From the NCBI GenBank assembly GCA_963680875.1, contig OY804579.1, positions 49,564,536 through 49,628,535 of the forward strand: 64,000 nucleotides of DNA, given 5' to 3'. The notes under the pieces are model-generated. The model made no database searches. It was not told the DNA's origin and saw only the letters and a program-made list of their open reading frames with translations. The DNA comes from Bathymodiolus brooksi. Taxonomy: Eukaryota; Mollusca; Bivalvia; Mytilida; Modiolidae. Both the position numbers and the translations under genes were made by a program. The stretch's first letter is position 1; every line of letters begins with the position of its first letter. Of this stretch, positions 10,991 through 64,000 are shown piece after piece.

Positions 10991-11407
10991 ACGACAATCA
11001 GAACGTATCTGTTGTCATTATAATACATGCAATTTGTCGTAAAAGGTGTGATTATTATTAGATATACAATCCATATCTAAATATATTTCTTGGTTTTGGC
11101 TATCCTGAAACTTTGGTATGCTTGCTCAGGATGGTTTTACAAAGCGTTGGTCATCAGTCTGACGCCTATATCGATTATGATATTGTTATCCTGCTTCACA
11201 CTGATAATCACAGTTTTCTGGCTTTGAGTGTTCGGTCATATATTCTCTAATTAAGACGTATTATGATATTTATACATCCAATATGAAGACAATTGTTGCC
11301 AATAAATATTGTCTTATTTACAACTGGTGACGTTAGTGGTCAGTTAGAAGTCTTCATACCACTGATTATGCTTGTAATCCAAACGTCAAAAATGTGTATC
11401 TTGTAGA
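10991..11407. other. intergenic DNA, no gene seen
   Basis: No coding frame, RNA or repeat recognised between two retroelement fragments. Confidence 0.5.
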
Positions 11408-12060: not shown

Positions 12061-13410
12061 ACACCCTTCTTGTACAGCTGTGTTAATAAATTCAACTGCT
12101 GTCTTAAGACAAGTAAAACAGTTTATCGCCCTTTTATTTTGATATTTGTGTGTACTCAATGAAACGTATAATGTACTTATCGTGTCATTTTCATCGCATA
12201 CGTATTGCACAAGAAGAAATCATACATATATAATTGCTATACGATTTTCATAAGCAAATCATTTTATTGTATTCAAATGAATTGTTCATCCATTTTTCAA
12301 ACTGTATATAATATGTTCATTTGATTTTCATTGATGGTATAGTCATGATTTTAGCATTCGTTCGTAATACATGTTTAAAATAGGTACCACATATTACAGT
12401 ATTAACTAGGAATTGTCTATATATGTATTACCGTTATCACGAGGGGAGGGTTGTGATCCCATTATCCGGTTTAACCCCACCACATTTGTGTGGTTGTTCC
12501 TATCCAGGATTTTGATTTCTAACGTCATATCTCGTGGTCCTTTTGTGTTCAGTGAGTTCAGCTAAGATGAGAGGTGATTGTTCGTTTTGTTAATATTGGC
12601 TTAAACTTTCTTTTCATAATTAAACATGTATTTGCATGCAGACGATTCAAGGTTGTATAAGTAGATACATGTTTACCAAAAGTCAGTAATCGTCAACGTA
12701 AGATTGTCTTTAGGCATGGCAAAATCCAATATGTGTATGTTTGTGACTAATGAACCTACCATATTACTTTTAGAGGAGGCTATCTTTTCCCTACCCGAGC
12801 AAGAATTTTTTTTTTCATGAAACAAAATCAGTTTATTTTTTCATGAAACAATTGTATTTTTTTTTCTCAAATATTCTCAAAATGTTAGTGCCGTATTAAT
12901 TATTATTTACATCTTCGGAGTCAGTTTAATTTTTTTTTCTGTAAAAGAATTTGAAGACATAATTTGTTTTAAAAATTAAACCGTTTATATATCAATATCT
13001 ATATTAATATATCAATCAATGACGATGGTCACAATTTATATTTTATTTATTTATATATTCTGTATATGTAGGAGGAAAAATATAATAGACCCGTGTACAT
13101 ATATATTGCTTAGGTCAATAAAATTTAAATATCTACATTATTATATTTGTTTTTCTATAACTCACGTGTGTATGGGGTGAGGTGACAAATTAGGTGCTTA
13201 GCTAATATTCACCAGAGTATTAGTTTAAATCTATCACGATATCATTTATATCTTTCTTAATTATATCTAATTGTCTTTGTTTTAGTGTCTGTTATAGTTG
13301 TCAGAGACGACAAGATTGTTCGATAATAGCAATATTACATGACCCATTTTTTTTTTAATATTAAAAACGTATGATGAACATTTACAAAGGAAGAATACCT
13401 AGTATAAAAA

Positions 13411-13471
13411 ATGTCGACATCGATTGTACTTTTACTGGTTCTCTTCATGAAATGCGGGTTTTCTTTTGCAG
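13411..13471 (+). CDS. signal-peptide first exon, copy 1
   Basis: ATG with A at -3 opens a 61-nt coding exon for MSTSIVLLLVLFMKCGFSFA plus the first base of a Gly codon, then a donor CAG|GTCAGA (GT at 13,472). The peptide has a classical hydrophobic core and an S-F-A end suited to signal peptidase. It ends in phase 1, matching the phase-1 acceptor of the VWA-like exon at 46,144; the join would read SFA-GCAPER. Linking them requires an intron of about 29-33 kb, which is inference. No promoter element is convincing upstream. The peptide is too short to identify alone, so the call rests on signal, donor and phase together. Confidence 0.6.
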
Positions 13472-13551
13472 GTCAGATATAGTATTTTTTATAGAAATTT
13501 TAATTATTTAAAAGCTAATTAACTTACATCATGCACACTTTGCCGATAATT

Positions 13552-13812
13552 GAGGGTTAGGGTTAGGATTATGGTGCTTAACGTCACTTTCAACAATATT
13601 TCAGTTATATCATGGCGGATAGTTTTATTGGTAGCGGAGAGCGGATTACACAGAGAAAACCACTGATCAGTCGCAAGTCAGTGACAAACTTTATAACATA
13701 ATGTTGTATCAAGTACACCACACCATGAACGGGGTTCGAACTCACAACGTCAGTAGTGATAGGCACTGACTGCATAAGTAGTTAAAATCCAATTACCACG
13801 ACCACGACGTCC
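13552..13812 (-). mobile_element. tRNA-related SINE (triplication copy 1)
   Basis: On the minus strand the order is a head with GTGGTCGTGGTAATTGG (A-box-like), a B-box-like GAGTTCGAACCCCG, a body, then ATATAACTGAAATATTG, TTGAAAGTGACGTTAAGC and a TAACCCTAACCC tail. The same order is seen at 50,601-50,872. The 3' portion resembles the conserved end of molluscan SINEs that I recall. The other triplication copies are at 15,273-15,533 and 16,994-17,254. Confidence 0.75.
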
Positions 13813-13847
13813 CCGCCGATATTTGAATTTAATTAGAAGAGTAAATA

Positions 13848-13965
13848 AACAGTACCTGTTCCACTAATGACACCTGTCGTGTTACTCTCGTCACAAACCC
13901 AGTGATAATTGATGAACGAGGAAAGGAAGGGATTGTTATTTACGATACCCTTATCCCCTCCATAC
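13848..13965 (-). mobile_element. partial retroelement tail (repeated in each triplication unit)
   Basis: The plus strand shows CAGTACCTGTTCCACTAATG, ACACCTGTCGTGTTAC and GAGGAAAGGAAGGGATTG, the reverse complement of the tail family described at 6,511. Identical copies occur 1,721 and 3,442 bp downstream. Confidence 0.65.
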
Positions 13966-15131
13966 TTTTATCCAGCAAATCATTTTATTGTATTCAAATG
14001 AATTGTTCATCCATTTTTCAAACTGTATATAATATGTTCATTTGATTTTCATTGATGGTATAGTCATGATTTTAGCATTCGTTCGTAATACATGTTTAAA
14101 ATAGGTACCACATATTACAGTATTAACTAGGAATTGTCTATATATGTATTACCGTTATCACGAGGGGAGGGTTGTGATCCCATTATCCGGTTTAACCCCA
14201 CCACATTTGTGTGGTTGTTCCTATCCAGGATTTTGATTTCTAACGTCATATCTCGTGGTCCTTTAGTGTTCAGTGAGTTCAGCTAAGATGAGAGGTGATT
14301 GTTCGTTTTGTTAATATTGGCTTAAACTTTCTTTTCATAATTAAACATGTATTTGCATGCAGACGATTCAAGGTTGTATAAGTAGATACATGTTTACCAA
14401 AAGTCAGTAATTGTCAACGTAAGATTGTCTTTAGGCATGGCAAATTCCAATATGTGTATGTTTGTGACTAATGAACCTACCATATTACTTTTAGAGGAAG
14501 CTATCTTTTCCCTACCCGAGCAAGAATTTTTTTTTTCATGAAACAAAATCAGTTTATTTTTTCATGAAACAATTGTATTTTTTTTTCTCAAATATTCTCA
14601 AAATGTTAGTGCCGTATTAATTATTATTTACATCTTCGGAGTCAGTTTAATTTTTTTTTCTGTAAAAGAATTTGAAGACATAATTTGTTTTAAAAATTAA
14701 ACCGTTTATATATCAATATCTATATTAATATATCAATCAATGACGATGGTCACAATTTATATTTTATTTATTTATATATTCTGTATATGTAGGAGGAAAA
14801 ATATAATAGACCCGTGTACATATATATTGCTTAGGTCAATAAAATTTAAATATCTACATTATTATATTTGTTTTTCTATAACTCACGTGTGTATGGGGTG
14901 AGGTGACAAATTAGGTGCTTAGCTAATATTCACCAGAGTATTAGTTTAAATCTATCACGATATCATTTTTATCTTTCTTAATTATATCTAATTGTCTTTG
15001 TTTTAGTGTCTGTTATAGTTGTCAGAGACGACAAGATTGTTCGATAATAGCAATATTACATGACCCATTTTTTTTTTAATATTAAAAACGTATGATGAAC
15101 ATTTACAAAGGAAGAATACCTAGTATAAAAA

Positions 15132-15192
15132 ATGTCGACATCGATTGTACTTTTACTGGTTCTCTTCATGAAATGCGGGTTTTCTTTTGCAG
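15132..15192 (+). CDS. signal-peptide first exon, copy 2
   Basis: Identical to copy 1, exactly 1,721 bp downstream: the same 20-residue signal peptide, phase-1 end and CAG|GTCAGA donor. Any of the three copies could splice to the same downstream exon, which would make them interchangeable first exons with separate upstream regions. Confidence 0.55.
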
Positions 15193-15272
15193 GTCAGATA
15201 TAGTATTTTTTATAGAAATTTTAATTATTTAAAAGCTAATTAACTTACATCATGCACACTTTGCCGATAATT

Positions 15273-15533
15273 GAGGGTTAGGGTTAGGATTATGGTGCTT
15301 AACGTCACTTTCAACAATATTTCAGTTATATCATGGCGGATAGTTTTATTGGTAGCGGAGAGCGGATTACACAGAGAAAACCACTGATCAGTCGCAAGTC
15401 AGTGACAAACTTTATAACATAATGTTGTATCAAGTACACCACACCATGAACGGGGTTCGAACTCACAACGTCAGTAGTGATAGGCACTGACTGCATAAGT
15501 AGTTAAAATCCAATTACCACGACCACGACGTCC
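15273..15533 (-). mobile_element. tRNA-related SINE (triplication copy 2)
   Basis: Same SINE as at 13,552-13,812, carried along by the 1,721-bp triplication. Confidence 0.75.
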
Positions 15534-16852
15534 CCGCCGATATTTGAATTTAATTAGAAGAGTAAATAAACAGTACCTGTTCCACTAATGACACCTGTCG
15601 TGTTACTCTCGTCACAAACCCAGTGATAATTGATGAACGAGGAAAGGAAGGGATTGTTATTTACGATACCCTTATCCCCTCCATACTTTTATCCAGCAAA
15701 TCATTTTATTGTATTCAAATGAATTGTTCATCCATTTTTCAAACTGTATATAATATGTTCATTTGATTTTCATTGATGGTATAGTCATGATTTTAGCATT
15801 CGTTCGTAATACATGTTTAAAATAGGTACCACATATTACAGTATTAACTAGGAATTGTCTATATATGTATTACCGTTATCACGAGGGGAGGGTTGTGATC
15901 CCATTATCCGGTTTAACCCCACCACATTTGTGTGGTTGTTCCTATCCAGGATTTTGATTTCTAACGTCATATCTCGTGGTCCTTTAGTGTTCAGTGAGTT
16001 CAGCTAAGATGAGAGGTGATTGTTCGTTTTGTTAATATTGGCTTAAACTTTCTTTTCATAATTAAACATGTATTTGCATGCAGACGATTCAAGGTTGTAT
16101 AAGTAGATACATGTTTACCAAAAGTCAGTAATTGTCAACGTAAGATTGTCTTTAGGCATGGCAAATTCCAATATGTGTATGTTTGTGACTAATGAACCTA
16201 CCATATTACTTTTAGAGGAAGCTATCTTTTCCCTACCCGAGCAAGAATTTTTTTTTTCATGAAACAAAATCAGTTTATTTTTTCATGAAACAATTGTATT
16301 TTTTTTTCTCAAATATTCTCAAAATGTTAGTGCCGTATTAATTATTATTTACATCTTCGGAGTCAGTTTAATTTTTTTTTCTGTAAAAGAATTTGAAGAC
16401 ATAATTTGTTTTAAAAATTAAACCGTTTATATATCAATATCTATATTAATATATCAATCAATGACGATGGTCACAATTTATATTTTATTTATTTATATAT
16501 TCTGTATATGTAGGAGGAAAAATATAATAGACCCGTGTACATATATATTGCTTAGGTCAATAAAATTTAAATATCTACATTATTATATTTGTTTTTCTAT
16601 AACTCACGTGTGTATGGGGTGAGGTGACAAATTAGGTGCTTAGCTAATATTCACCAGAGTATTAGTTTAAATCTATCACGATATCATTTTTATCTTTCTT
16701 AATTATATCTAATTGTCTTTGTTTTAGTGTCTGTTATAGTTGTCAGAGACGACAAGATTGTTCGATAATAGCAATATTACATGACCCATTTTTTTTTTAA
16801 TATTAAAAACGTATGATGAACATTTACAAAGGAAGAATACCTAGTATAAAAA

Positions 16853-16913
16853 ATGTCGACATCGATTGTACTTTTACTGGTTCTCTTCATGAAATGCGGG
16901 TTTTCTTTTGCAG
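16853..16913 (+). CDS. signal-peptide first exon, copy 3
   Basis: Third identical copy, and the closest to the rest of the gene. Intron 1 from this copy would run from 16,914 to 46,143 and contain the whole 28-kb minisatellite. Start choice and evidence are as for copy 1. Confidence 0.6.
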
Positions 16914-16993
16914 GTCAGATATAGTATTTTTTATAGAAATTTTAATTATTTAAAAGCTAATTAACTTACATCATGCACACTTTGCCGATAATT

Positions 16994-17254
16994 GAGGGTT
17001 AGGGTTAGGATTATGGTGCTTAACGTCACTTTCAACAATATTTCAGTTATATCATGGCGGATAGTTTTATTGGTAGCGGAGAGCGGATTACACAGAGAAA
17101 ACCACTGATCAGTCGCAAGTCAGTGACAAACTTTATAACATAATGTTGTATCAAGTACACCACACCATGAACGGGGTTCGAACTCACAACGTCAGTAGTG
17201 ATAGGCACTGACTGCATAAGTAGTTAAAATCCAATTACCACGACCACGACGTCC
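16994..17254 (-). mobile_element. tRNA-related SINE (triplication copy 3)
   Basis: Same SINE as at 13,552-13,812, third copy in the triplication. Confidence 0.75.
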
Positions 17255-17416
17255 CCGCCGATATTTGAATTTAATTAGAAGAGTAAATAAACAGTACCTG
17301 TTCCACTAATGACACCTGTCGTGTTACTCTCGTCACAAACCCAGTGATAATTGATGAACGAGGAAAGGAAGGGATTGTTATTTACGATACCCTTATCCCC
17401 TCCATACTTTTATCCA

Positions 17417-17910
17417 GCAATACACGCAATAAGGTAAACCTTTCAGAAGCAGAGAAATGGGCTGTCAGTTGTTGTTATCAACTCCTTCGTCAGTTTTAAG
17501 TCTAGATCATTGAAACTATGCATAGGGTTTGTAAACATCTTAGACATAATAGGTACACTAAGTTGATAATGTTGATGGCTATGCTTCATACGCGTTAGAG
17601 GAGGGGCAATCAAGAATGGACAATCGAGAGATCCAGAGAGGCTGCCAACTGATAGAACAATTAATTGAATACTCGACCGTAAATACAAAAATCAATATTT
17701 ATTAGATGGAAATATTAACATAACTAATTTTTGAATTCGGTTGGGATTATCTTGTGATTTCATAATAGCACGAATAAAACTATTGAAAAAGGTGTGAATA
17801 AATGCAATATTAAGTTTGCAACTTATATTTCTTCAAATAGTGAATACAAATTGGAAGATACCAAAGGAATTAACAAAGCTCTAAGAGCTTATTAAAACTA
17901 TAGAAACTAG
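17417..17910. other. unique sequence between triplication and 28-kb array
   Basis: About 490 bp with no gene. A minus-strand open frame at 17,688-17,443 (81 residues, containing SGSLDCPFLIAPPLTRM) has no known domain. A weakly similar stretch (GCTGGATTGTCCATTTTTAA) lies near 48,057, so it may be part of a dispersed repeat. Confidence 0.4.
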
Positions 17911-46143: not shown

Positions 46144-46725
46144 GTTGTGCGCCTGAGCGATTAGATGTTGCATTCTATTTAGTAAGAGACAAAGAGGTGT
46201 CAGAAACAGATATTCAAAATCAAGTGAATTTTGCAAAGGCGATAGTTAACGCTGCTACCGTTGGATTTATGCAAACACGATTCTCCTGTCATGTCTATGG
46301 ATCTACAGGAGAAGAAATATTTGATTTCAAATCAAAAACTTCTAAAGATGGTGTTCTTGCTGCTCTGGATGCTATTCCAACGTCTATTTCAGGCAGTGGT
46401 GTACTAGAAACGATCGAAAACATCAAATACATATGGGAAACTATATTTACAGTAGACAAGGGAGACAGACCAAACATTAGCGATTATTGTATAATGATGG
46501 CATCAGGCGAAAATAATGATACGTATGACTCTGCAGGCCGTTTGAAACCCAATGAATTAGATTTGGGAATTATTGACGCACAGACGAATTATGAAGCAAA
46601 TATGTATTATACCAGTTCAAGTTATGTTTCTTTTGCGGAACACCGACCAATTAGTTCTTTTTCTGTTATTAATTTGAATACAGAAGTAGAAGTTTTTACC
46701 AGCAAATTGTTTACCTGCAACTATT
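46144..46725 (+). CDS. exon 2: von Willebrand factor A-like domain
   Basis: The exon lies between an acceptor TTGTTTGTAG (AG at 46,142-46,143) and a donor ATT|GTAAGTATTT (GT at 46,726). It is 582 nt and enters and leaves in phase 1. It starts CAPERLDVAFYLVRDKEV, then follows the VWA order: helix SETDIQNQVNFAKAIV, strand RFSCHVYGSTGEEIFDF, helix region GVLETIENIKYIWETIF, strand ISDYCIMMASGEN, strand DLGIIDAQ, and last helix SFSVINLNTEVEVFTSKLF. The MIDAS DxSxS expected after the first strand is absent (YLVRDKEVSE), so classical metal-dependent ligand binding is doubtful. The likely role is extracellular protein binding. No antisense gene is supported. Confidence 0.7.
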
Positions 46726-47526: not shown

Positions 47527-47595
47527 ATTGTGATGTTAATTATTTCGCATATGATGATCCAAAATTACTGAAGACGTATCAAGATTCCGACTCAG
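47527..47595 (+). CDS. exon 4: short linker exon
   Basis: A 69-nt exon between TTTTCATAG and CTCAG|GTAGG, phase 1 at both ends, encoding CDVNYFAYDDPKLLKTYQDS. The junction codons with its neighbours are GAT and GGT, so no stop arises. The composition is acidic. The function is unknown, and the call rests on splice sites and phase. Confidence 0.5.
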
Positions 47596-49584: not shown

Positions 49585-49755
49585 GTAGATTGTATTTATT
49601 AGCGGATGGACCATGGAACATAACGTGCTGTGGTGTGATAACATCCTGGATATTCTATGTAAAAGATAGCGGAACGCTTAAAATGTGCGTTTTCCGGCCA
49701 ACAGGGACGACAAACCAGTATAAAATAGTAGGATATACTATAATTATTGTTCCAG
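49585..49755 (+). CDS. exon 5: Cys-Cys/VFRP module, first half
   Basis: A 171-nt exon between CTCCATTCAG and TTCCAG|GTGTG, phase 1 at both ends. It encodes RLYLLADGPWNITCCGVITS, then WIFYVKDSGTLKMCVFRPT, then YKIVGYTIIIVP. The W..xCCGxI..W.FY..SG....VFRP...Y.IVGY pattern is a beta-rich extracellular module that I recall in unnamed bivalve and other invertebrate proteins beside VWA or cadherin domains. It continues in exon 6 (junction codon GAA). The function is unknown; ligand binding is a guess. Confidence 0.65.
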
Positions 49756-50481: not shown

Positions 50482-50549
50482 AAACGAGCATTGATACACT
50501 TTTAACGTATCCAAATATTGTTGGTCAAAGGATAGCTATTAAAGAAGGA
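50482..50549 (+). CDS. exon 6: module, GDxIGW segment
   Basis: The acceptor is TCTCTTTGACAG (AG at 50,480-50,481). The exon starts in phase 1 and ends in phase 2 at GGATG|GTACGA, about 68 nt. It encodes TSIDTLLTYPNIVGQRIAIK followed by EGDKIGW, the conserved GDxIGW end of the exon-5 module. The split Trp codon TG|G is completed exactly by the phase-2 acceptor of exon 7. The last base is approximate to within one or two positions. Confidence 0.6.
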
Positions 50550-50600
50550 GATAAAATAGGATGGTACGAACCATACATAATTATATAACACCAGAATTGT

Positions 50601-51626: not shown

Positions 51627-51811
51627 GTATTCATCTGGTCCCAATATAATATCTTACTCAACATGTAATGTATCTACTCGAACCGACTGTCCACAGAGCA
51701 ATTATTGGTATTCCCCCACAGAAGATATAGCAGTTGGAGATATTATAACAATGCCTACATCATCTGACCTAATGAACAGAGCCTACTCTTTGAAGTTCAC
51801 TACAGCAGATA
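51627..51811 (+). CDS. exon 7: module end and linker to cadherin-like part
   Basis: A 185-nt exon from an ATATGCAG acceptor (AG 51,625-51,626), entering in phase 2 and leaving in phase 1 at GATA|GTAAGA. Completing the split Trp it reads YSSGPNIISYSTCNVSTRT, then DCPQSNYWYSPTEDIAVGD, then MNRAYSLKFTTAD. Join 6/7 gives GDKIGWYSSG, which supports both splice sites. Two Cys and an NVS sequon fit an extracellular chain. Confidence 0.65.
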
Positions 51812-51837: not shown

Positions 51838-52186
51838 GGTGTCTTATAAAGTTTTAAGTTGTCGTTATATACTTACTCGAATTAAATTTATCCAGTGTTT
51901 TAATGTGTTATATTGCAATAATTAGAAATACATTTACCTGGTGTTTTAATCTGTTATATTGCAAATATTAGAAATGAATTTACCCGATGTTTTAAGTTGT
52001 CATATTGCAATAATTAGAAATAAATTTACCTGATGTTTTAAGCTGATATATTGCAATAATTAGAAATAAATTTACATTGGGTTTTAAGTTGTTATATTGC
52101 AATAATTAGAAATAAATTTAACTGTGGTTTTAAGCTGATATATTGCAATAATTAGAAATAAATTTACATGGGGTTTTAAGTTTTCA
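51838..52186. repeat. 46-bp minisatellite, part 1
   Basis: About seven units of TATATTGCAATAATTAGAAA followed by TAAATTTACCTGGTGTTTTA, period about 46 bp. It breaks off at the RT insertion at 52,186 and resumes at 53,176. Confidence 0.9.
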
Positions 52187-53172
52187 GCAGGTCGTCGGCA
52201 TACCAATGGGTACGAATTGTGCCCCTCTTCTAGCCGATTTATTTTTATACTCATATGAGTCGGAGTTTCTTCAAAAGCTTGTAAAAGATAAGAAGATTCA
52301 TGAGGCTAGAGCCTTTAATTTCACATACAGGTATATTGATGACGTTTTATCTATCAATAATTCTAGATTTGCAGAATTTCTTCCATTGATATATCCTCCA
52401 GAGCTGGAAGTTAAAGAGACCACCGATACAGCTTCGTCCGCATCATTTTTGGACTTATACCTCGAATTTGACGACAGTGGTCAACTCAGTACTAAAATTT
52501 ATGATAAGCGGGACGACTTCAATTTTAAAATCATAAATTTTCCAAATATGTGCAGCAATATACCAGCTTCTCCTGCATATGGTGTTTACATCTCGCAATT
52601 GATTCGCTATGCAAGGGGCAGTAGCAATTATTCTGATTTCCTGAAACGTCATCTTCATCTGAGAAACAGGCTACTGGACCAGGGCTATAAAAAGATTCGC
52701 CTTATTCGATCTCTTAAAAAGTTTATATTCCGATACCAATATCTTGTCGAAATATATTCCGTCTCTGCAGAAAAAATTATAAGCGATGCATTTTCATATA
52801 GTGAAAATGTATAAAGATAAAGAGTCAAATATGTCAAGAATTTTTTTTTGTCAATGTGTGACGTAAAAATATTTTTGACATTTACGTCACCGAATATGGT
52901 ACTGCTTTGACAACTATTTTACCTATTTTGTTCCTGTATTTAAATACTGTTACAGTGACAGCCGGAACCTTTGAACCGTAATGAGAGCGGGAGGTTTGGC
53001 GCCTTAAAATCTGATTCAACCCACCATTTCTTTAGAAATGCCTGTACCAAGTCAGGGTCATTACGGTTTTCACAGTTTTCCGGTTGTTGACTGATTTTGT
53101 CTGTTTATATAATTATGAGTTTTGACTTTCCCTTTGTAAGATTGTTCGGAGTTCGGTAATTTTGTTATTACC
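52186..53172 (+). mobile_element. 5'-truncated YIDD-type retroelement inserted in the 46-bp array
   Basis: Coding starts within GIPMGTNCAPLLADLF and runs open to 52,814. The 3' non-coding tail includes CGGGAGGTTTGGCGCC and ATGCCTGTACCAAGTCAGG. The 46-bp array stops at its left edge and resumes just after its right edge, so this is a clean insertion. It lacks the N-terminal half of the RT. Its tail differs from the dispersed tail at 6.5 and 11.8 kb, so at least two related families may be present. Confidence 0.8.
52206..52814 (+). pseudogene. reverse transcriptase fragment with intact YIDD
   Basis: A 202-residue open frame with PMGTNCAPLLADLFLYSYE (residues 1-18 plus the preceding Pro), then FTYRYIDDVLSINNSRF with catalytic YIDD at 43-46. 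Next come KETTDTASSASFLDLYLEFD, YDKRDDFNFKIINFPNMCS, NIPASPAYGVYISQLIRYAR and LLDQGYKKIRLIRSLKKF. The catalytic Asp pair is intact, but the N-terminal RT motifs are missing because of 5' truncation. I recall this protein type as very common in molluscan and fish genomes. Assignment to Penelope-like or another class is not settled by sequence reading. The absence of stops suggests a young insertion. Confidence 0.8.
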
Positions 53173-53175
53173 TTA

Positions 53176-53420
53176 ATTGTTATATTGCAATAATTAGAAA
53201 TAAATTTAACTGTGGTTTTAAGCTGTTATATTGCAATAATTAGAAATAAATCTACCCGATGTTATAAGTTGTCATATTGCAATAATTAGAAATAAATTTA
53301 TCTGGTGTTTTAAGTTGTTATATTGCAATAATTAGAAATAAATTTACCTGGTGTTTTAAGTTGTTATATTGCAATAATTAGAAATTAATTTATCTGGTGT
53401 TTTAAGTTGTTTTATTAACT
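53176..53420. repeat. 46-bp minisatellite, part 2
   Basis: Five further units of the array described at 51,838, ending near 53,420 before unrelated sequence and the palindrome. Confidence 0.9.
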
Positions 53421-53743
53421 TATAGTATATGTTTCTCATATGCTATATTTTTAACTGATTACAAGAAAATTTTTAAAATAGCCGGCGGAGTGAAACAGTT
53501 TACTGTTCCCCTACTTCCGGATCCGAACTATTCCATGCCCAAGAAAGATGCGCAGTGCGTCATTCCTGTCAAGCGCATCAGTGACCATTCAGTTCGTTAG
53601 GCAGACGAGATGGCAGATAAATAATCAACAAAATGCTGTATTTCTTTCAAAACAATGTTGTGTCCCAATTTTTTAATGGTTTGGTATGCTGACATTATCA
53701 TCTTCAGTGGATTTGTGGTTATGTGCATGTATATAAGATAATA

Positions 53744-53911
53744 AAACAGTTATTACATGCCTGTTCAGGGAACAGTCAAAACTATTGTCCCTCGGTGCTG
53801 GAGATGACTTGGGAACTGTTGCCTTCGGCCTCAGGCAACAGTTCCCAAGTCATCTCCAGCACCTCGGGTCAATAATCTTGACTGTTCCCTGAACAGGCAT
53901 AAAATAACTGT
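53744..53911. repeat. long palindrome (fold-back element) with CCTTCGG core
   Basis: The arms are about 75-80 bp. The left arm has CCTGTTCAGGGAACAGTCAA and GGAGATGACTTGGGAACTGT, and the right arm has their complements around a centre at GCCTTCGGC. A few mismatches occur in the arms. The palindrome and its flanks (about 53,420-53,914) separate parts 2 and 3 of the 46-bp array, so this too is probably an insertion. Confidence 0.85.
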
Positions 53912-53914
53912 ATA

Positions 53915-54330
53915 ATATTACAATAATTAGAAATACATTTACCTGGTGTTTTAAGTTGTTATATTGCAATAATTAGAAATAAATCTACCGTATGTTTTAA
54001 GTTGTTATATTACAATAATTATAATGATATTTTCCCGGTGTTTTAACCTGTTATATTGCAATAATTGTAAATAAATTTACTTGGTGTTTTAAGTTGTTAT
54101 TTTTAATAATTAGAATTAAGCTTACTTCGTGTTTTAAAGTGTTATTTTACAATATTAGAATTAAGCTTACCCAGTTTTTGATATTGAAATATTAGAATAA
54201 TAAGGTTTAAATATTGGTCTACCCGATGTTTTAAGATGCTATATTGCAAATATTAGAATTAAATATAGTTGGTGTGGAGTTAAATGGAACTATTACTTTA
54301 CATTGTTGTAATACAAACTTTAGAAATAAA
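53915..54330. repeat. 46-bp minisatellite, part 3 (diverged)
   Basis: Continuation of the array, with growing divergence to the right (GTTATTTTTAATAATTAG and TTACTTCGTGTTTTAAAG variants). It fades out at about 54,330. Confidence 0.8.
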
Positions 54331-55574: not shown

Positions 55575-55751
55575 ATACAGAGTTGATTATTAGGACTAGT
55601 GAACATGAAACCGAGCTAGAAGAAAATACTGCTGTTGGAGTGAGAGCAATATATTTAACTATTGTTGATACTGATGCTTACGAAGATCATGTGTTTACGA
55701 TGACCGGTGCTACGGACTACTTTGAGCTTAACATTGTTAACACTGAGAAAA
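55575..55751 (+). CDS. exon 8: cadherin-like repeat 1, first half
   Basis: A 177-nt exon between CAATTATAG and GAAAA|GTAAGT, phase 1 at both ends. It encodes ELIIRTSEHETELEENTAVG, then VRAIYLTIVDTDAYEDHVF, then TMTGATDYFELNIVNTEK. EENTAVG...V.DTDAYED.VF matches the E-N-x-x-x-G and D-x-D order of cadherin repeats. The canonical DRE and DxNDNxP calcium motifs are not seen. The junction codons AAT (to exon 7) and ATG (to exon 9) are open. Confidence 0.65.
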
Positions 55752-57370: not shown

Positions 57371-57495
57371 TGACAATTGACCTCAATACCAAGTTCCCGA
57401 AAGGAGGTGGCGGACCTTACATAGTCACAATATCTGGTGAAGATACTTGTCAACATTCCGCTACTGTTACCCTTACTATTGGAACATATAATGCA
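57371..57495 (+). CDS. exon 9: cadherin-like repeat 1, second half
   Basis: A 125-nt exon from TTTAATGCAG to GCA|GTAAGT, entering in phase 1 and leaving in phase 0. It encodes TIDLNTKFPKGGGGPYIVT, then ISGEDTCQHSATVTLTIG and TYNA. It has the Y.V.I...D......A.VTLTI pattern of the last strands of a cadherin repeat, and TYNA-PP at the join with exon 10 sits where the N-x-P linker would be. The phase change 1 to 0 is matched by exon 10. Confidence 0.65.
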
Positions 57496-58323: not shown

Positions 58324-58501
58324 CCTCCAATTATAAATAATTTACCTTACATTCATGAGATGTTAGAAACTACAAAAACGGCAGTTCCTCTGTTCATGAT
58401 TAATGTCACCGATGCTACAAACGACGATGTGTGTTGTACTCTACCCTTTACCTTGCCAAATTCGCCTAACTTTGTGCTGCACAATATTACCAATGACATC
58501 G
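58324..58501 (+). CDS. exon 10: cadherin-like repeat 2, first half
   Basis: A 178-nt exon from TTATTTCAG to GACATCG|GTAAGC, entering in phase 0 and leaving in phase 1. It encodes PPIINNLPYIHEMLETTKTA, then VPLFMINVTDATNDDVCC, then PNSPNFVLHNITNDI. The P.I.NLP....E......LF.I.VTDA...D pattern is cadherin-like, with a CC pair as in the neighbouring modules and two N-glycosylation sequons. The junction codon with exon 11 is GGC. Confidence 0.65.
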
Positions 58502-59007
58502 GTAAGCCTACAATACGTTCATATTTACATACATGTAACACTGAAATTTTTAATACTTAATATGACCATCATTTATTGGCGCGTAAACTTGGTTTTTATT
58601 ACTAGGTTAAGCTGTCTACAGAGTTTGTCATTAAAATATAAGACTAATGAGGTACTAAATACAGGCTAATTTAATATGCTATATAAACAGAAAAATGTCA
58701 TTCGGTATCAGTCGCCGGTGATGATATCGACATAGTTCACTGCTACCTATCATTCAACCGTGACGATATCAGTAATCATGCACCGTGACACATGTTTGTG
58801 TCTGTTTCAAGTAGAGTGAGTGATTATTGTTTAAAGTCAATGAGCAGTCTTTCAGTTATATCATGGCGATAACAAGTTACATTTTGATGAGATGATGATG
58901 ATGTCCGCTTTGTACTAGACCAACGCGCTGAGTGGAGGTTTATAGTACTAGCTCACTGAAACAATAGTCCGCGGGTAGACATGTCGCTCCAATCGGTCAC
59001 ATTATTT
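58502..59007. other. intron sequence, no gene seen
   Basis: Contains a 20-bp remnant of the SINE 3' end (TTTCAGTTATATCATGGCG near 58,851). Nothing else is recognised. Confidence 0.45.
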
Positions 59008-59930
59008 TTGTATTTATGATGTGTTCTATTCAGACTGTTTATGTTTGTATTCACGACTTGTTCTTTGTAGACTGTTATCTTTGTATTTATGACTTGTTCT
59101 TTGCAGACTCTTATAAATTATCTTTGTATTTATGACTTGTTCTTTGCAGAATGTTACATGTTATCTTTGTATTGATGACTTGTTCTTTGCAGACTGTTTA
59201 TGTTTGTATTTATGACTTGTTCTTTGCAGACTGTTTATGTTTGTATTTATGACTTGTTCTTTGCCGACTGTTTATGTTTGTATTCATGACTTGTTCTTTG
59301 CAGACTGTTTATGTTTGTATTTATGACTTGTTCTTTGCAGACTGTTTATGTTTGTATTTATGACTTGTTCTTTGCAGACTGTTTATGTTTGTATTTATGA
59401 CTGTTCTTTGCCGACTGTTTATGTTTGTATTTATGACTTGTTCTTTGCAGACTGTTTATGTTTGTATTTATGACTTGTTCTTTGCCGACTGTTTATGTTT
59501 GTATTTATGACTTGTTCTTTGCAGACTGTTTATGTTTGTATTTATGACTTGTTCTTTGCCGACTGTTTATGTTTGTATTTATGACTTGTTCTTTGCCGAC
59601 TGTTTATGTTTGTATTTATGACTTGTTCTTTGCCGACTGTTTATGTTTGTATTTATGACTTGTTCTTTGCCGACTGTTTATGTTTGTATTTATGACTTGT
59701 TCTTTGCAGACTGTTTATGTTTGTATTTATGACTTGTTCTTTGCCGACTCTTTATGTTTGTATTTATGACTTGTTCTTTGCCGACTGTTTATGTTTGTAT
59801 TTATGACTTGTTCTTTGCCGACTGTTTATGTTTGTATTTATGACTTGTTCTTTGCCGACTGTTTATGTTTGTATTTATGACTTGTTCTTTGCCGACTGTT
59901 TATGTTTATGTTTATCTTTGTAGTTATGAC
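59008..59930 (+). repeat. 37-bp minisatellite with acceptor-like units, about 24 copies
   Basis: Unit ACTGTTTATGTTTGTATTTA followed by TGACTTGTTCTTTGCAG, period 37 bp. Each unit has a T-rich tract followed by GCAG or GCCG; about half keep AG, mostly on the left side, while GCCG dominates on the right. It lies in the intron between exons 10 and 11, on the sense strand, so the units look like 3' splice sites. No coding sequence is present. Confidence 0.9.
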
Positions 59931-61004: not shown

Positions 61005-61172
61005 GCGTAGAAGAATTGTGGCTGTATACTATTGAGGAACCAGCCTTTGAATACAGTGACATAGATTCCTACAGATTATTTGTTTGTTGCGAAGACCCGT
61101 ACGGCTCTTCATATAGCTATCTTATTCTACGATTAGTAGAGGTTAAGCAAGTGTCAGAATACGTTCCTCCAG
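61005..61172 (+). CDS. exon 11: cadherin-like repeat 2, second half
   Basis: A 168-nt exon from CATATGTTGTAG to CCTCCAG|GTATGT, phase 1 at both ends. It encodes VEELWLYTIEEPAFEYSDID, then SYRLFVCCEDPYGSSYSYLI, then LRLVEVKQVSEYVPPG. L..IEEPAFEYSD.DSYRLFV.C.DPYG...S.L.LRL.EV follows the closing strands of cadherin repeats (yE....Y.L.V...D..G). The gene continues beyond the window. Its donor seeds the 30-bp array that follows. An in-frame TAA comes right after the donor, so retention of the next repeat unit would end the protein. Confidence 0.7.
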
Positions 61173-64000
61173 GTATGTAAGAATACGAATACGTTCCTCC
61201 AGGTATGTAAGAATACGAATACGCTCATCAAGCTATGTAAGAATACGAATACGTTCCTCCAGGTATGTACGAATACGAATACGTTCCTCCAGGTATGTAA
61301 GAATACGAATACGCTCATCAAGCTATGTAAGAATACGAATACGTTCCTCCAGGTATGTAAGAATACGAATACGTTCCTCCAGGTATGTAAGAATACGAAT
61401 ACGCTCATCAAGCTATGTAAGAATACGAATACGTTCCTCCAGGTATGTAAGAATACGAATACGTTCCTCCAGGTGTGTAAGAATACGAATACGCTCATCA
61501 AGCTATGTAAGAATACGAATACGTTCCTCCAGGTATGTAAGAATACGAATACGTTCCTCCAGGTATGTAAGAATACGAATACGCTCATCAAGGTATGTAA
61601 GAATACGAATACGTTCCTCCAGGTATGTAAGAATACGAATACGCTCCTGCAGGTATGTAAGAATACGAATACGCTCCTGCAGGTATGTAAGAGTTAGAAT
61701 ACGTTCCTGCAGGTATGTAAGAGTCAGAATACATTCCTGTAGGTATGTAAGAGTCAGAATACGCTCCTGCAGGTATGTAAGAGTCATAATACGCTCCTCC
61801 AGGTATGTAAGAGTCAGAATACGCTCATCCAGGTATGTAAGAGTTGGAATATGCTCCTCCGTGTAAGAAAGAGTCAGAATACGCTCCTGTAGGTATGTAA
61901 GAGTCAGAATACGCTCCTGTTGGCATGTAAGAGTCAGAATACGCTCCATCAGGTATGTAAGCCAGATTACGCTCCTCTAAGTATGTAAGAGTCGGAATAC
62001 GATCCACCAGGTATGTAAGAGTCAGAATAAGCTACTCCAGGTATGCAAGAGTCAGAATACGCTCCTCTAGGTATGTAAGAGTCGGAATACACTCCACCGG
62101 GTATGTAGGAATCCGAATACGCTCCTCCAGGTATGTAGCAGTCAGAATACGCTCTTCCAGGTATGTAAGAGTCAGAATACGCTCCTCCAGGTATGTAAGA
62201 GTCAGAATACGCTCCTCCAGGTATGTACAATGTAAGAGTAAGAATACGCTCCTCCAGGTATGTAAGAGTCAGAATATACTCCACCAGGTATGTAAGAATC
62301 CGAATCCGCTCCTCCAGGTATGTAGCAGTCAGAATACACTCTTCCAGGTATGTAAGAGTCAGAATACACTCCTCCAGGTATGTAAGAATCAGAATACGCT
62401 CCCCCAGGTATGTAAGAGTCAGAATACGCTCCTCCAGGTATGTAAGAGTCAGAATACGCTCCTCCAGGTATGTACAATGTAAGAGTAAGAATACGCTCCT
62501 CCAGGTATGTAAGAGTCAGAATATACTCCACCAGGTATGTAAGAATCCGAATCCGCTCCTCCAGGTATGTAGCAGTCAGAATACGCTCTTCCAGGTATGT
62601 AAGAGTCAAAATACGCTCCTCCGGATATGTAAGAGTCAGAATACGCTCCTCCAGGTATGCAAGAGTCAGAATACGCTCCTCCAGGTATGTAAGAGTCAGA
62701 ATACGCTCCTCCAGGTATGTAAGAGTCAGAATACGCTCCTCCAGGTATGTAAGAGTCAGAATACGCTCCTCCGGGTATGTAAGAGTCAGAATACGCTCCT
62801 CCAGGTATGCAAGAGTCAGAATACGCTCCTCCAGATAAGTACAATGTAAGAGTCAGAATACGCTCCTCCAGGTTTGTAAGAGTCAGAATGCACTCCTGCA
62901 GGTATGTAAGAGTAAGAGTACGCTCCTCCAGGTATGTAAGAGTCAGAATACGCTCCTCCAGGTATGTAAGAGTCAGAATACGCTCCTCCAGGTTAGTAAG
63001 AGTCAGAATACGCTCCTCCAAGCTAGTAAGAGTCGGAATACACTCCTCCAGGCTAGTAAGAGTCAGAATACGCTCCTCCAGGTATGTGCGAATCCGAATA
63101 GGCTCCTCTAGGTATAACAGAGTCAGAATATGCTCCTCCAGGTATGTACAATGTAAGAGTCAGAATACTCTCCTCCAGGTTAGTGAGAGTCAGAATACGC
63201 TCCTGTAGGTATGTAAGAGTCAGAATACGCTCATCCAGGTATGTAAGAGTCAGAATACGCTCCTCTAGGTATGTAAGAGTCAGAATACACTCCACCAGGT
63301 ATGTAAGAGTCAGAATACGCTCCTCTAGGTATGTAAGAGTCAGAATACACTCCACCAGGTATGTAAAAATCCGAATACGCTCCACCAGGTATGTAGCAGT
63401 CAGAATACGCTCTTCCAGATAGGTAAGAGTCGGAATACACTCCACCAGGTATGTAAGAGTAATAGTACGCTCCTCCAGGTATGTAAGAGTCAGAATACGC
63501 TCCTCCAGGTATATAGGAGTCAGAATACGCTCCTCCATGTTAGTAAGAGTCCGAATAAGCTCCTCCAGGTATGTAAGAATCCGAATATGCTCCTCCAGGT
63601 ATGTAGCAATCAGAATACGCTCTTCCAGGTATGTAAGAGTCAGAATACACTCCACCAGGTATGTAAGAGTCAGAATACGCTCCTCTAGGTATGTAAGAGT
63701 CAGAATACACTCCACCAGGTATGTAAAAATCCGAATACGCTCCACCAGGTATGTAGCAGTCAGAATACGCTCTTCCAGATAGGTAAGAGTCAGAATACAC
63801 TCCACCAGGTATGTAAGAGTAATAGTACGCTCCTCCAGGTATGTAAGAGTCAGAATACGCTCCTCCAGGTATATAGGAGTCAGAAAACGCTCCTCCATGT
63901 TAGTAAGAGTCCGAATACGCTCCTCCAGGTATGTAAGAATCCGAATATGCTCCTCCAGGTATGTAGCAGTCAGAATACGCTCTTCCAGGTATGTACAATG
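61173..64000 (+). repeat. 30-bp minisatellite made from an exon end plus its splice donor, about 94 copies
   Basis: Units read GTATGTAAGAGTCAG then AATACGCTCCTCCAG (right part of the array) or GTATGTAAGAATACG then AATACGTTCCTCCAG (left part). The part AGAATACGTTCCTCCAG equals the last bases of exon 11 and GTATGTAAG equals its donor. The left 450 bp is organised as 90-bp triplets in which every third unit has CTCATCAAGC. Further right a 360-bp (12-unit) block is repeated (63,362/63,722), and TACAATGTAAG insertions occur at 62,225, 62,472, 62,838 and 63,147. Open frames on both strands follow the period and are not genes. The array runs off the window. Confidence 0.95.

What the first reader, a model, noticed from the sequence alone, without database searches (positions are those of the whole stretch)
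61143..64000. Minisatellite seeded on an exon-intron junction: about 90 tandem splice donors
Seen: the 30-bp unit is the end of exon 11 (AATACGTTCCTCCAG) plus its donor (GTATGTAAG), repeated to the window end. Most units keep CAG|GTATGT, and each also holds an overlapping GTAAGA. Established: U1 binds such donors, and competing donors change splice choice. Inference: only the first donor keeps the protein open, since an in-frame TAA follows at once; use of any later donor would add a premature stop. The array may act as a U1 sink, tune expression through aberrant mRNA, or be neutral but tolerated because exon definition favours the first site.
Basis: partly seen in the sequence, partly recalled or inferred. 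Interest (0 to 1): 0.9.

Follow-up and report, generated by a model that had tools for sequence, protein, structure and literature searches.

The report
Exon-end splice signal repeated 94 times
In a mussel-like gene, the 30 letters that straddle one exon-intron boundary are repeated at least 94 times in a row; a related intron-free sequence, likely from RNA, reads past the first splice signal and ends two codons on, which would likely give a soluble form of a protein otherwise predicted to be anchored in the membrane.

Summary
A 30-bp tandem array of 94 full units (61,149-63,994, running off the window) begins inside an exon; each unit is the exon's last 24 nt plus the first 6 nt of its intron. 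The exon is well supported: exon 1 and nine further exons fit a VWA-domain gene, and four relatives (three named Mytilus) share its final YVPP. 79 of 94 units keep AG|GT, 67 keep AGGTATGT. The kind is already described: 'mirages' in amphioxus, with IFI6 and UBC as functional cousins. Two points are new here: the array is much longer than the mirages I read of and sits in a mollusc-like gene; and an 88%-identical 600-aa relative on a 1,901-bp intron-free contig ends ...YVPPGM, as read-through of this first donor to the TAA beside it would, while the other four relatives with a full C-terminus carry a hydrophobic tail. So missing the first donor, whichever later donor is taken, should give one product: the protein minus its predicted anchor. 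Donor positions are not significantly better conserved than the rest of the unit (permutation p 0.21). Neutral origin with a built-in stop is the best reading; U1 sink and recursive splicing lack support. No RNA reads, and no DNA beyond the window, could be examined.

The parts
13411..13471 (+). exon 1 (coding part), copy 1 (MSTSIVLLLVLFMKCGFSFAG, predicted signal peptide), followed by gtcaga; identical copies begin at 15132 and 16853
   Evidence: tblastn of P0001 residues 1-21, 100% identity at all three places; sequence
46144..46725 (+). exon 2 (VWA domain)
   Evidence: open frame, AG/GT ends; Pfam VWA E 1e-12 for the joined protein, residues 17-135
47527..47595 (+). exon 3
49585..49755 (+). 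exon 4
50482..50563 (+). exon 5
51627..51811 (+). exon 6
55575..55751 (+). exon 7
57371..57495 (+). exon 8
58324..58501 (+). exon 9
61005..61172 (+). exon 10, ending ...YVPP + 1 nt (phase 1); its last 24 nt (61149-61172) are the exon part of unit 1 of the array
61173..61178 (+). first donor GTATGT, the only donor of the array upstream of the in-frame stop
   Evidence: sequence; U1 duplex energy
61178..61180 (+). in-frame TAA met if the first donor is not used (protein would end ...YVPPGM)
   Evidence: same ending in P0001 and P0009
61149..63994 (+). 30-bp minisatellite, 94 full units, continuing to the window end as a partial unit
11130..11227 (+). copy of the hydrophobic last exon (WFYKALVISLTPISIMILLSCFTLIITVFWL, stop), phase 1, upstream of this gene; taken to belong to a neighbouring paralogue
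   Evidence: tblastn of P0003 residues 603-638, E 7.5e-10; position and acceptor

Best explanation
This is a 'mirage'-type minisatellite: the last 24 nt of exon 10 and the first 6 nt of its intron stand in at least 94 tandem copies, likely grown by slippage and unequal exchange without selection for the extra donors, and a TAA beside the first donor means that any RNA not spliced there would make one product, the VWA protein without its predicted C-terminal membrane anchor. Shown: the array, its overlap with a coding exon whose YVPP end is shared by relatives, the stop, no significant excess of conservation at donor positions, and an intron-free relative sequence that ends as this read-through would. 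Inferred: that the first donor joins to an anchor exon beyond the window in the membrane form, that the array is otherwise passive intron, and that the read-through form is made as protein and is soluble. Untested: which donors are used, and how often.
For: Exons 2-10 join into 578 open codons with GT/AG ends and matching phases; P0001 aligns over all of them and over exon 1. Of the five relatives that are complete at the C-terminus, four (P0002, P0003, P0004, P0006) continue YVPPDWFF...TVFWL and P0001 alone ends YVPPGM (P0005 stops in exon 9 and is not counted). P0009, an 88-aa ORF on a 209,584-bp contig at 97% identity, has intron sequence before exon 10 and ends YVPPGM, as unspliced DNA of this gene would. 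A phase-1 hydrophobic exon of this kind lies at 11130-11227; its best 19-residue mean hydropathy is 2.53 against 1.31 for the rest of the protein. YVPP is in proteins 58-64% identical to this one, so the exon came first and the array copied it. AAG stands at both edges of the founding unit, a possible place for slippage. Stretches of at least 97% identity at lags of 90, 247 and 360 bp point to block exchange. Donor positions: mean diversity 0.124 against 0.167 elsewhere over 93 units, permutation p 0.21, rank 6 of 30 circular windows; with three more donor positions 0.136 against 0.166.
Against: P0001 is one cluster representative from an unnamed source; it is 88% identical, so an allele, paralogue or another species, and its DNA could not be read. 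Its contig could be a partly processed RNA, could break in the repeats, or could be a retrocopy. In the amphioxus mirages that were tested, splicing is reported normal (PMC3087553 section 16). The exon after the array lies outside the window, so the membrane form of this very gene was not seen; two searches with a query that carries the tail found no tailed protein closer than P0006 (68%; none with the tail), though their length limits leave out full-length proteins. The donor diversity is slightly lower than the rest, so weak selection is not excluded.
Confidence: 0.55

Rival explanations
1. Inert mirage: the first donor is used practically always, the copies are silent intron, and P0001 is a partly spliced or mis-assembled RNA.
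For: Normal splicing is reported for amphioxus Adh3, globin, TnC and PGBD5 mirages (PMC3087553 section 16 and one passage of PMC3902484). No significant excess of donor conservation. Only one intron-free read-through sequence was found.
Against: P0001 has nine introns removed and only this one read through; its cluster holds 13 member sequences, though I could not see the members.
Confidence: 0.3
2. Terminal exon: this gene or allele has lost its anchor exon, the protein always ends at the TAA, and the array is 3' untranslated or downstream DNA with fossil donors.
For: The one close full-length relative ends there; no tailed protein close to this one was found; the array runs off the window, so no later exon was seen.
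Against: Donor copies are mostly intact (79 of 94 with AG|GT); a tail exon of the right phase exists nearby; no AATAAA or ATTAAA in 61149-64000.
Confidence: 0.12
3. U1 sink or donor-competition device: the many donors bind U1 and lower or tune correct splicing.
For: The commonest copy, CAGGTATGT, binds the U1 5' end (letters recalled) at -7.8 kcal/mol, as strong as donor 1 and stronger than 6 of the 8 donors of exons 2-9; exon 1's donor was not scored.
Against: No significant excess of conservation at donor positions; units 3, 6, 9 and 12 beside the exon have lost the donor.
Confidence: 0.06
4. Recursive or dual-specific splicing: each AG|GT serves as acceptor and then donor, so the array is removed in steps without changing the message.
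For: AG|GT in 79 of 94 units, commonly with CTCCTCC before it; the pyrimidine share before array sites, 0.59, lies within the range of real acceptors, 0.47-0.80; UBC uses a tandem array of such sites (PMC10809524 abstract and section 7).
Against: The AG-free stretch before array sites has median 13 nt and maximum 28 (78 sites; 4 reach 20) against 18-71 nt at ten acceptors (exons 2-10 and the tail exon), and T content is 0.21 against 0.33-0.73, so they look like poor acceptors.
Confidence: 0.04

Closest known systems
'Mirage' minisatellites of amphioxus (Adh3, globins BflGb6 and BflGb9, TnC, PGBD5)
   Same: Tandem repeats that span an exon-intron boundary, many copies keeping AG/GT, concerted turnover of units (PMC3087553 section 16, PMC3902484 passage).
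   Different: Here a mussel-like gene, at least 94 units (6 and 3 reported for two BflGb6 haplotypes), a stop two codons past the first donor, and a related sequence that reads through it.
Human IFI6 (6-16) minisatellite with multiple splice donors (Turri et al. 1995)
   Same: A minisatellite that offers several splice donors; downstream repeat units are used as donors (statement in PMC4526556; the 1995 paper is not held).
   Different: There the later donors are said to give different isoforms; here every later donor would give the same stop. Unit length and copy number of IFI6 were not checked here.
UBC tandem array of dual-specific AGGT sites
   Same: Tandem AGGT sites at a regular spacing that is a multiple of three (PMC10809524).
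   Different: UBC units are 228 nt and coding; these are 30 nt, are preceded by a stop in frame and look like poor acceptors.
Intron gain by tandem duplication around AG/GT (Rogers model)
   Same: Duplication around an AG|GT site (described in PMC3087553 section 16).
   Different: Here the intron was likely there first: the protein runs on from YVPP into the tail in relatives, and the tail exon at 11130 has the matching phase. The relatives' own intron positions were not seen.

Membership tests
Mirage minisatellite | tandem repeat whose unit spans an exon-intron boundary | tested here: met
   24 exon nt + 6 intron nt, 94 units; exon supported by homologues
Mirage minisatellite | many copies keep AG/GT splice signals | tested here: met
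   79 of 94 units
Mirage minisatellite | concerted turnover of units, length instability between haplotypes | tested here: inconclusive
   block copies at lags 90, 247, 360 bp; no second haplotype could be read
Mirage minisatellite | regular splicing not disturbed | tested here: inconclusive
   no RNA reads; P0001 reads through the first donor
IFI6-type donor minisatellite | downstream units proven as used donors | not testable with these tools
Dual-specific splice-site array (UBC type) | sites work as acceptor as well as donor | tested here: inconclusive
   sequence looks like poor acceptors: median AG-free stretch 13 nt; use not testable
Recursive splice sites | strong pyrimidine tract directly before AG|GT (definition recalled) | tested here: inconclusive
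   pyrimidine share 0.59 over 78 sites, within the 0.47-0.80 of ten acceptors of this gene family; T share 0.21, below their 0.33-0.73

The most novel reading that the evidence does not exclude
The array is a length-tunable switch between a membrane-bound and a secreted VWA protein: each allele's number of competing donors sets how often the true donor is missed, and because the stop stands beside the first donor, every miss yields the same soluble protein. A fast-mutating minisatellite would thus set the ratio of two forms of a surface protein from one individual to the next.
Probability: 0.1. Interest if true: 0.78.

Novelty: new member of a known kind. Interest (0 to 1): 0.45.

Why it matters
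Here nature offers dozens of near-identical donors 30 nt apart with one frame-keeping choice and a single, easily scored other outcome. It would show whether exon definition can hold against such competition, and it extends mirages from lancelets to what is most likely a mollusc. If allele length shifts the two protein forms, it would be a minisatellite with a direct protein read-out.

Tried and rejected
Coding repeat: 30 is a multiple of three, so several frames and the minus strand are open for long stretches (up to 315 codons); rejected because the exon's own frame meets TAA at once and the other frames are open by periodicity. Selection on donors: tested, not significant. Exon remodelled by an invading repeat: rejected, since YVPP is in proteins 58-64% identical and no near copy of the unit lies elsewhere in the window. 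Other copies of the unit: one exact 29-base pattern, 0 matches in viral contigs (that answer warns that records of the window's own genome may be left out); the other DNA collections on hand are described as prokaryotic, phage, plasmid or metagenomic and were not searched. Paralogous exon 10 before the tail exon at 11130: none found by tblastn of P0001 and P0003 against the window, so that gene's last intron would exceed 11 kb if the gene is complete. Acceptor-like 37-bp array in the intron before exon 10: 10 TTTGCAG, 12 TTTGCCG, 1 TTTGTAG; none of exons 2-10 starts with its ACTG, so I do not call it a mirage. Literature: eight searches; led to the two amphioxus papers. I noticed no bivalve case in these listings, but I opened only seven papers, not the two, and most subscription papers are not held, so this is no proof of absence.

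Full report
What is there. The window is taken as animal DNA from a mussel or near relative: the three relatives of its gene with a species name and a full C-terminus are from Mytilus (M. galloprovincialis, M. californianus, M. edulis, and for the lineage), at 58-59% identity, so the species is probably another mytilid; it was not identified. On the + strand, exons 46144-46725, 47527-47595, 49585-49755, 50482-50563, 51627-51811, 55575-55751, 57371-57495, 58324-58501 and 61005-61172 have AG/GT ends and join into 578 open codons plus one base. Pfam finds a VWA domain (E 1e-12). P0001, an 88%-identical 600-aa protein on a 1,901-bp contig, covers all of this, and its first 21 residues match exactly three places in the window, 13411, 15132 and 16853: exon 1, within a stretch that repeats at a lag of 1,721 bp. 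So the exon in question is exon 10 of this model.

The array. From 61,149 to 63,994 lie 94 full units of mostly 30 bp (four are 37 bp long), 55 distinct when insertions are ignored. Unit 1 is 24 nt of exon plus GTATGT and differs from the consensus at two places. AGGTATGT lies in 67 of 94 units, AGGT in 79, neither in 15; GTAAGA in 73. Beside the exon the order is a three-unit block whose third unit reads AAGCTATGT and has no GT (units 3, 6, 9, 12 in exon-first numbering). Stretches of at least 97% identity also occur at lags of 247 and 360 bp. Units 41-60 are the closest both to the consensus and to the exon copy (mean 1.25 and 3.25 differences; units 2-18: 4.65 and 5.47), so similarity to the exon does not fall off with distance, as expected if blocks have been shuffled.

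Why the exon came first. Four relatives at 58-64% identity (P0002, P0003, P0004, P0006) read EVKIIEPYVPPDWFFRALILSLTPIGLMTAVSCFTLLFTVFWL at this place, so YVPP is old and coding. The tail exon at 11130-11227 starts in phase 1, which fits the phase-1 end of exon 10; the intron positions of the relatives themselves were not seen. The unit starts at AAG within the exon, and most copies end GTATGT before the next AAG: slippage between two AAG is a simple founding step, inferred, not shown.

What it does to the message. If donor 1 is used, the frame can run on into the next exon. If it is not, TAA at 61178-61180 ends the protein as ...YVPPGM. This holds for every later donor, since they all lie after the TAA. 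P0001 ends ...YVPPGM. Its contig has 98 bases more than 601 codons need, and it lacks the nine earlier introns, so it looks like RNA-derived sequence; its DNA, its species and its 12 fellow cluster members could not be read, and a contig that breaks in the repeat, a retrocopy, or an alternative exon with the same two codons cannot be excluded. P0009 (88 aa, contig of 209,584 bp, 97% identity) shows exon 10 read straight on to the same GM ending, with intron sequence before the exon, as expected of unspliced genomic DNA. The tail that would be lost is hydrophobic (best 19-residue mean 2.03 in Mytilus and 2.53 in the copy at 11130-11227, against 1.31 for the rest); whether it is a transmembrane segment or a signal for a lipid anchor was not tested.

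Function of the extra donors. The commonest copy pairs with the U1 5' end at -7.8 kcal/mol, equal to donor 1 and stronger than 6 of the 8 donors of exons 2-9, so strength alone does not mark donor 1. Yet donor positions are not significantly better conserved than the rest (0.124 against 0.167, permutation p 0.21, 93 units). As acceptors the sites look poor by AG-free stretch and T content, though their pyrimidine share lies in the range of real ones. I therefore take the copies as passive, with a built-in stop that makes any miss uniform.

What is known. Minisatellite-like tandem duplications of exon-intron boundaries are described in amphioxus as mirages, with normal splicing (PMC3087553: passages and section 16 read; PMC3902484: one passage). 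Human IFI6 has a minisatellite with several donors (PMC4526556 passages, and reference-list entries there and in PMC3618361 and PMC2572611; the original is not held). UBC has tandem AGGT sites (PMC10809524: abstract and section 7). Repeats at exon-intron boundaries are also linked to new introns in human duplicated genes (PMC2812944 passages). This is a new member of a known kind, notable for copy number, host group and the read-through ending.

Noticed in passing
17925-46041: A 28-kb minisatellite with a 42-bp unit (about 669 copies) fills most of intron 1 and ends 102 bp before exon 2.
   Followed up: no
12236-17435: A segment of about 1,721 bp stands in three tandem copies, each with an identical exon 1 and the 60 bases before it, so the gene may have three promoters. 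The outer limits are approximate.
   Followed up: partly
59002-59915: A 37-bp array in the intron before exon 10 repeats an acceptor-like TTCTTTGCAG; 10 copies keep TTTGCAG and 12 read TTTGCCG.
   Followed up: partly
52152-52814: A 220-codon open frame that looks by eye like part of a reverse transcriptase (YIDD; label recalled, no family search run) lies between 46-bp arrays at 51879-52180 and 53173-54171.
   Followed up: no
11130-11227: A copy of the hydrophobic last exon lies upstream of exon 1, as if a neighbouring paralogue ended there.
   Followed up: partly
13411-64000: Four of the ten introns seen in whole or part (after exons 1, 6, 9 and 10) hold tandem arrays found by TRF.
   Followed up: no
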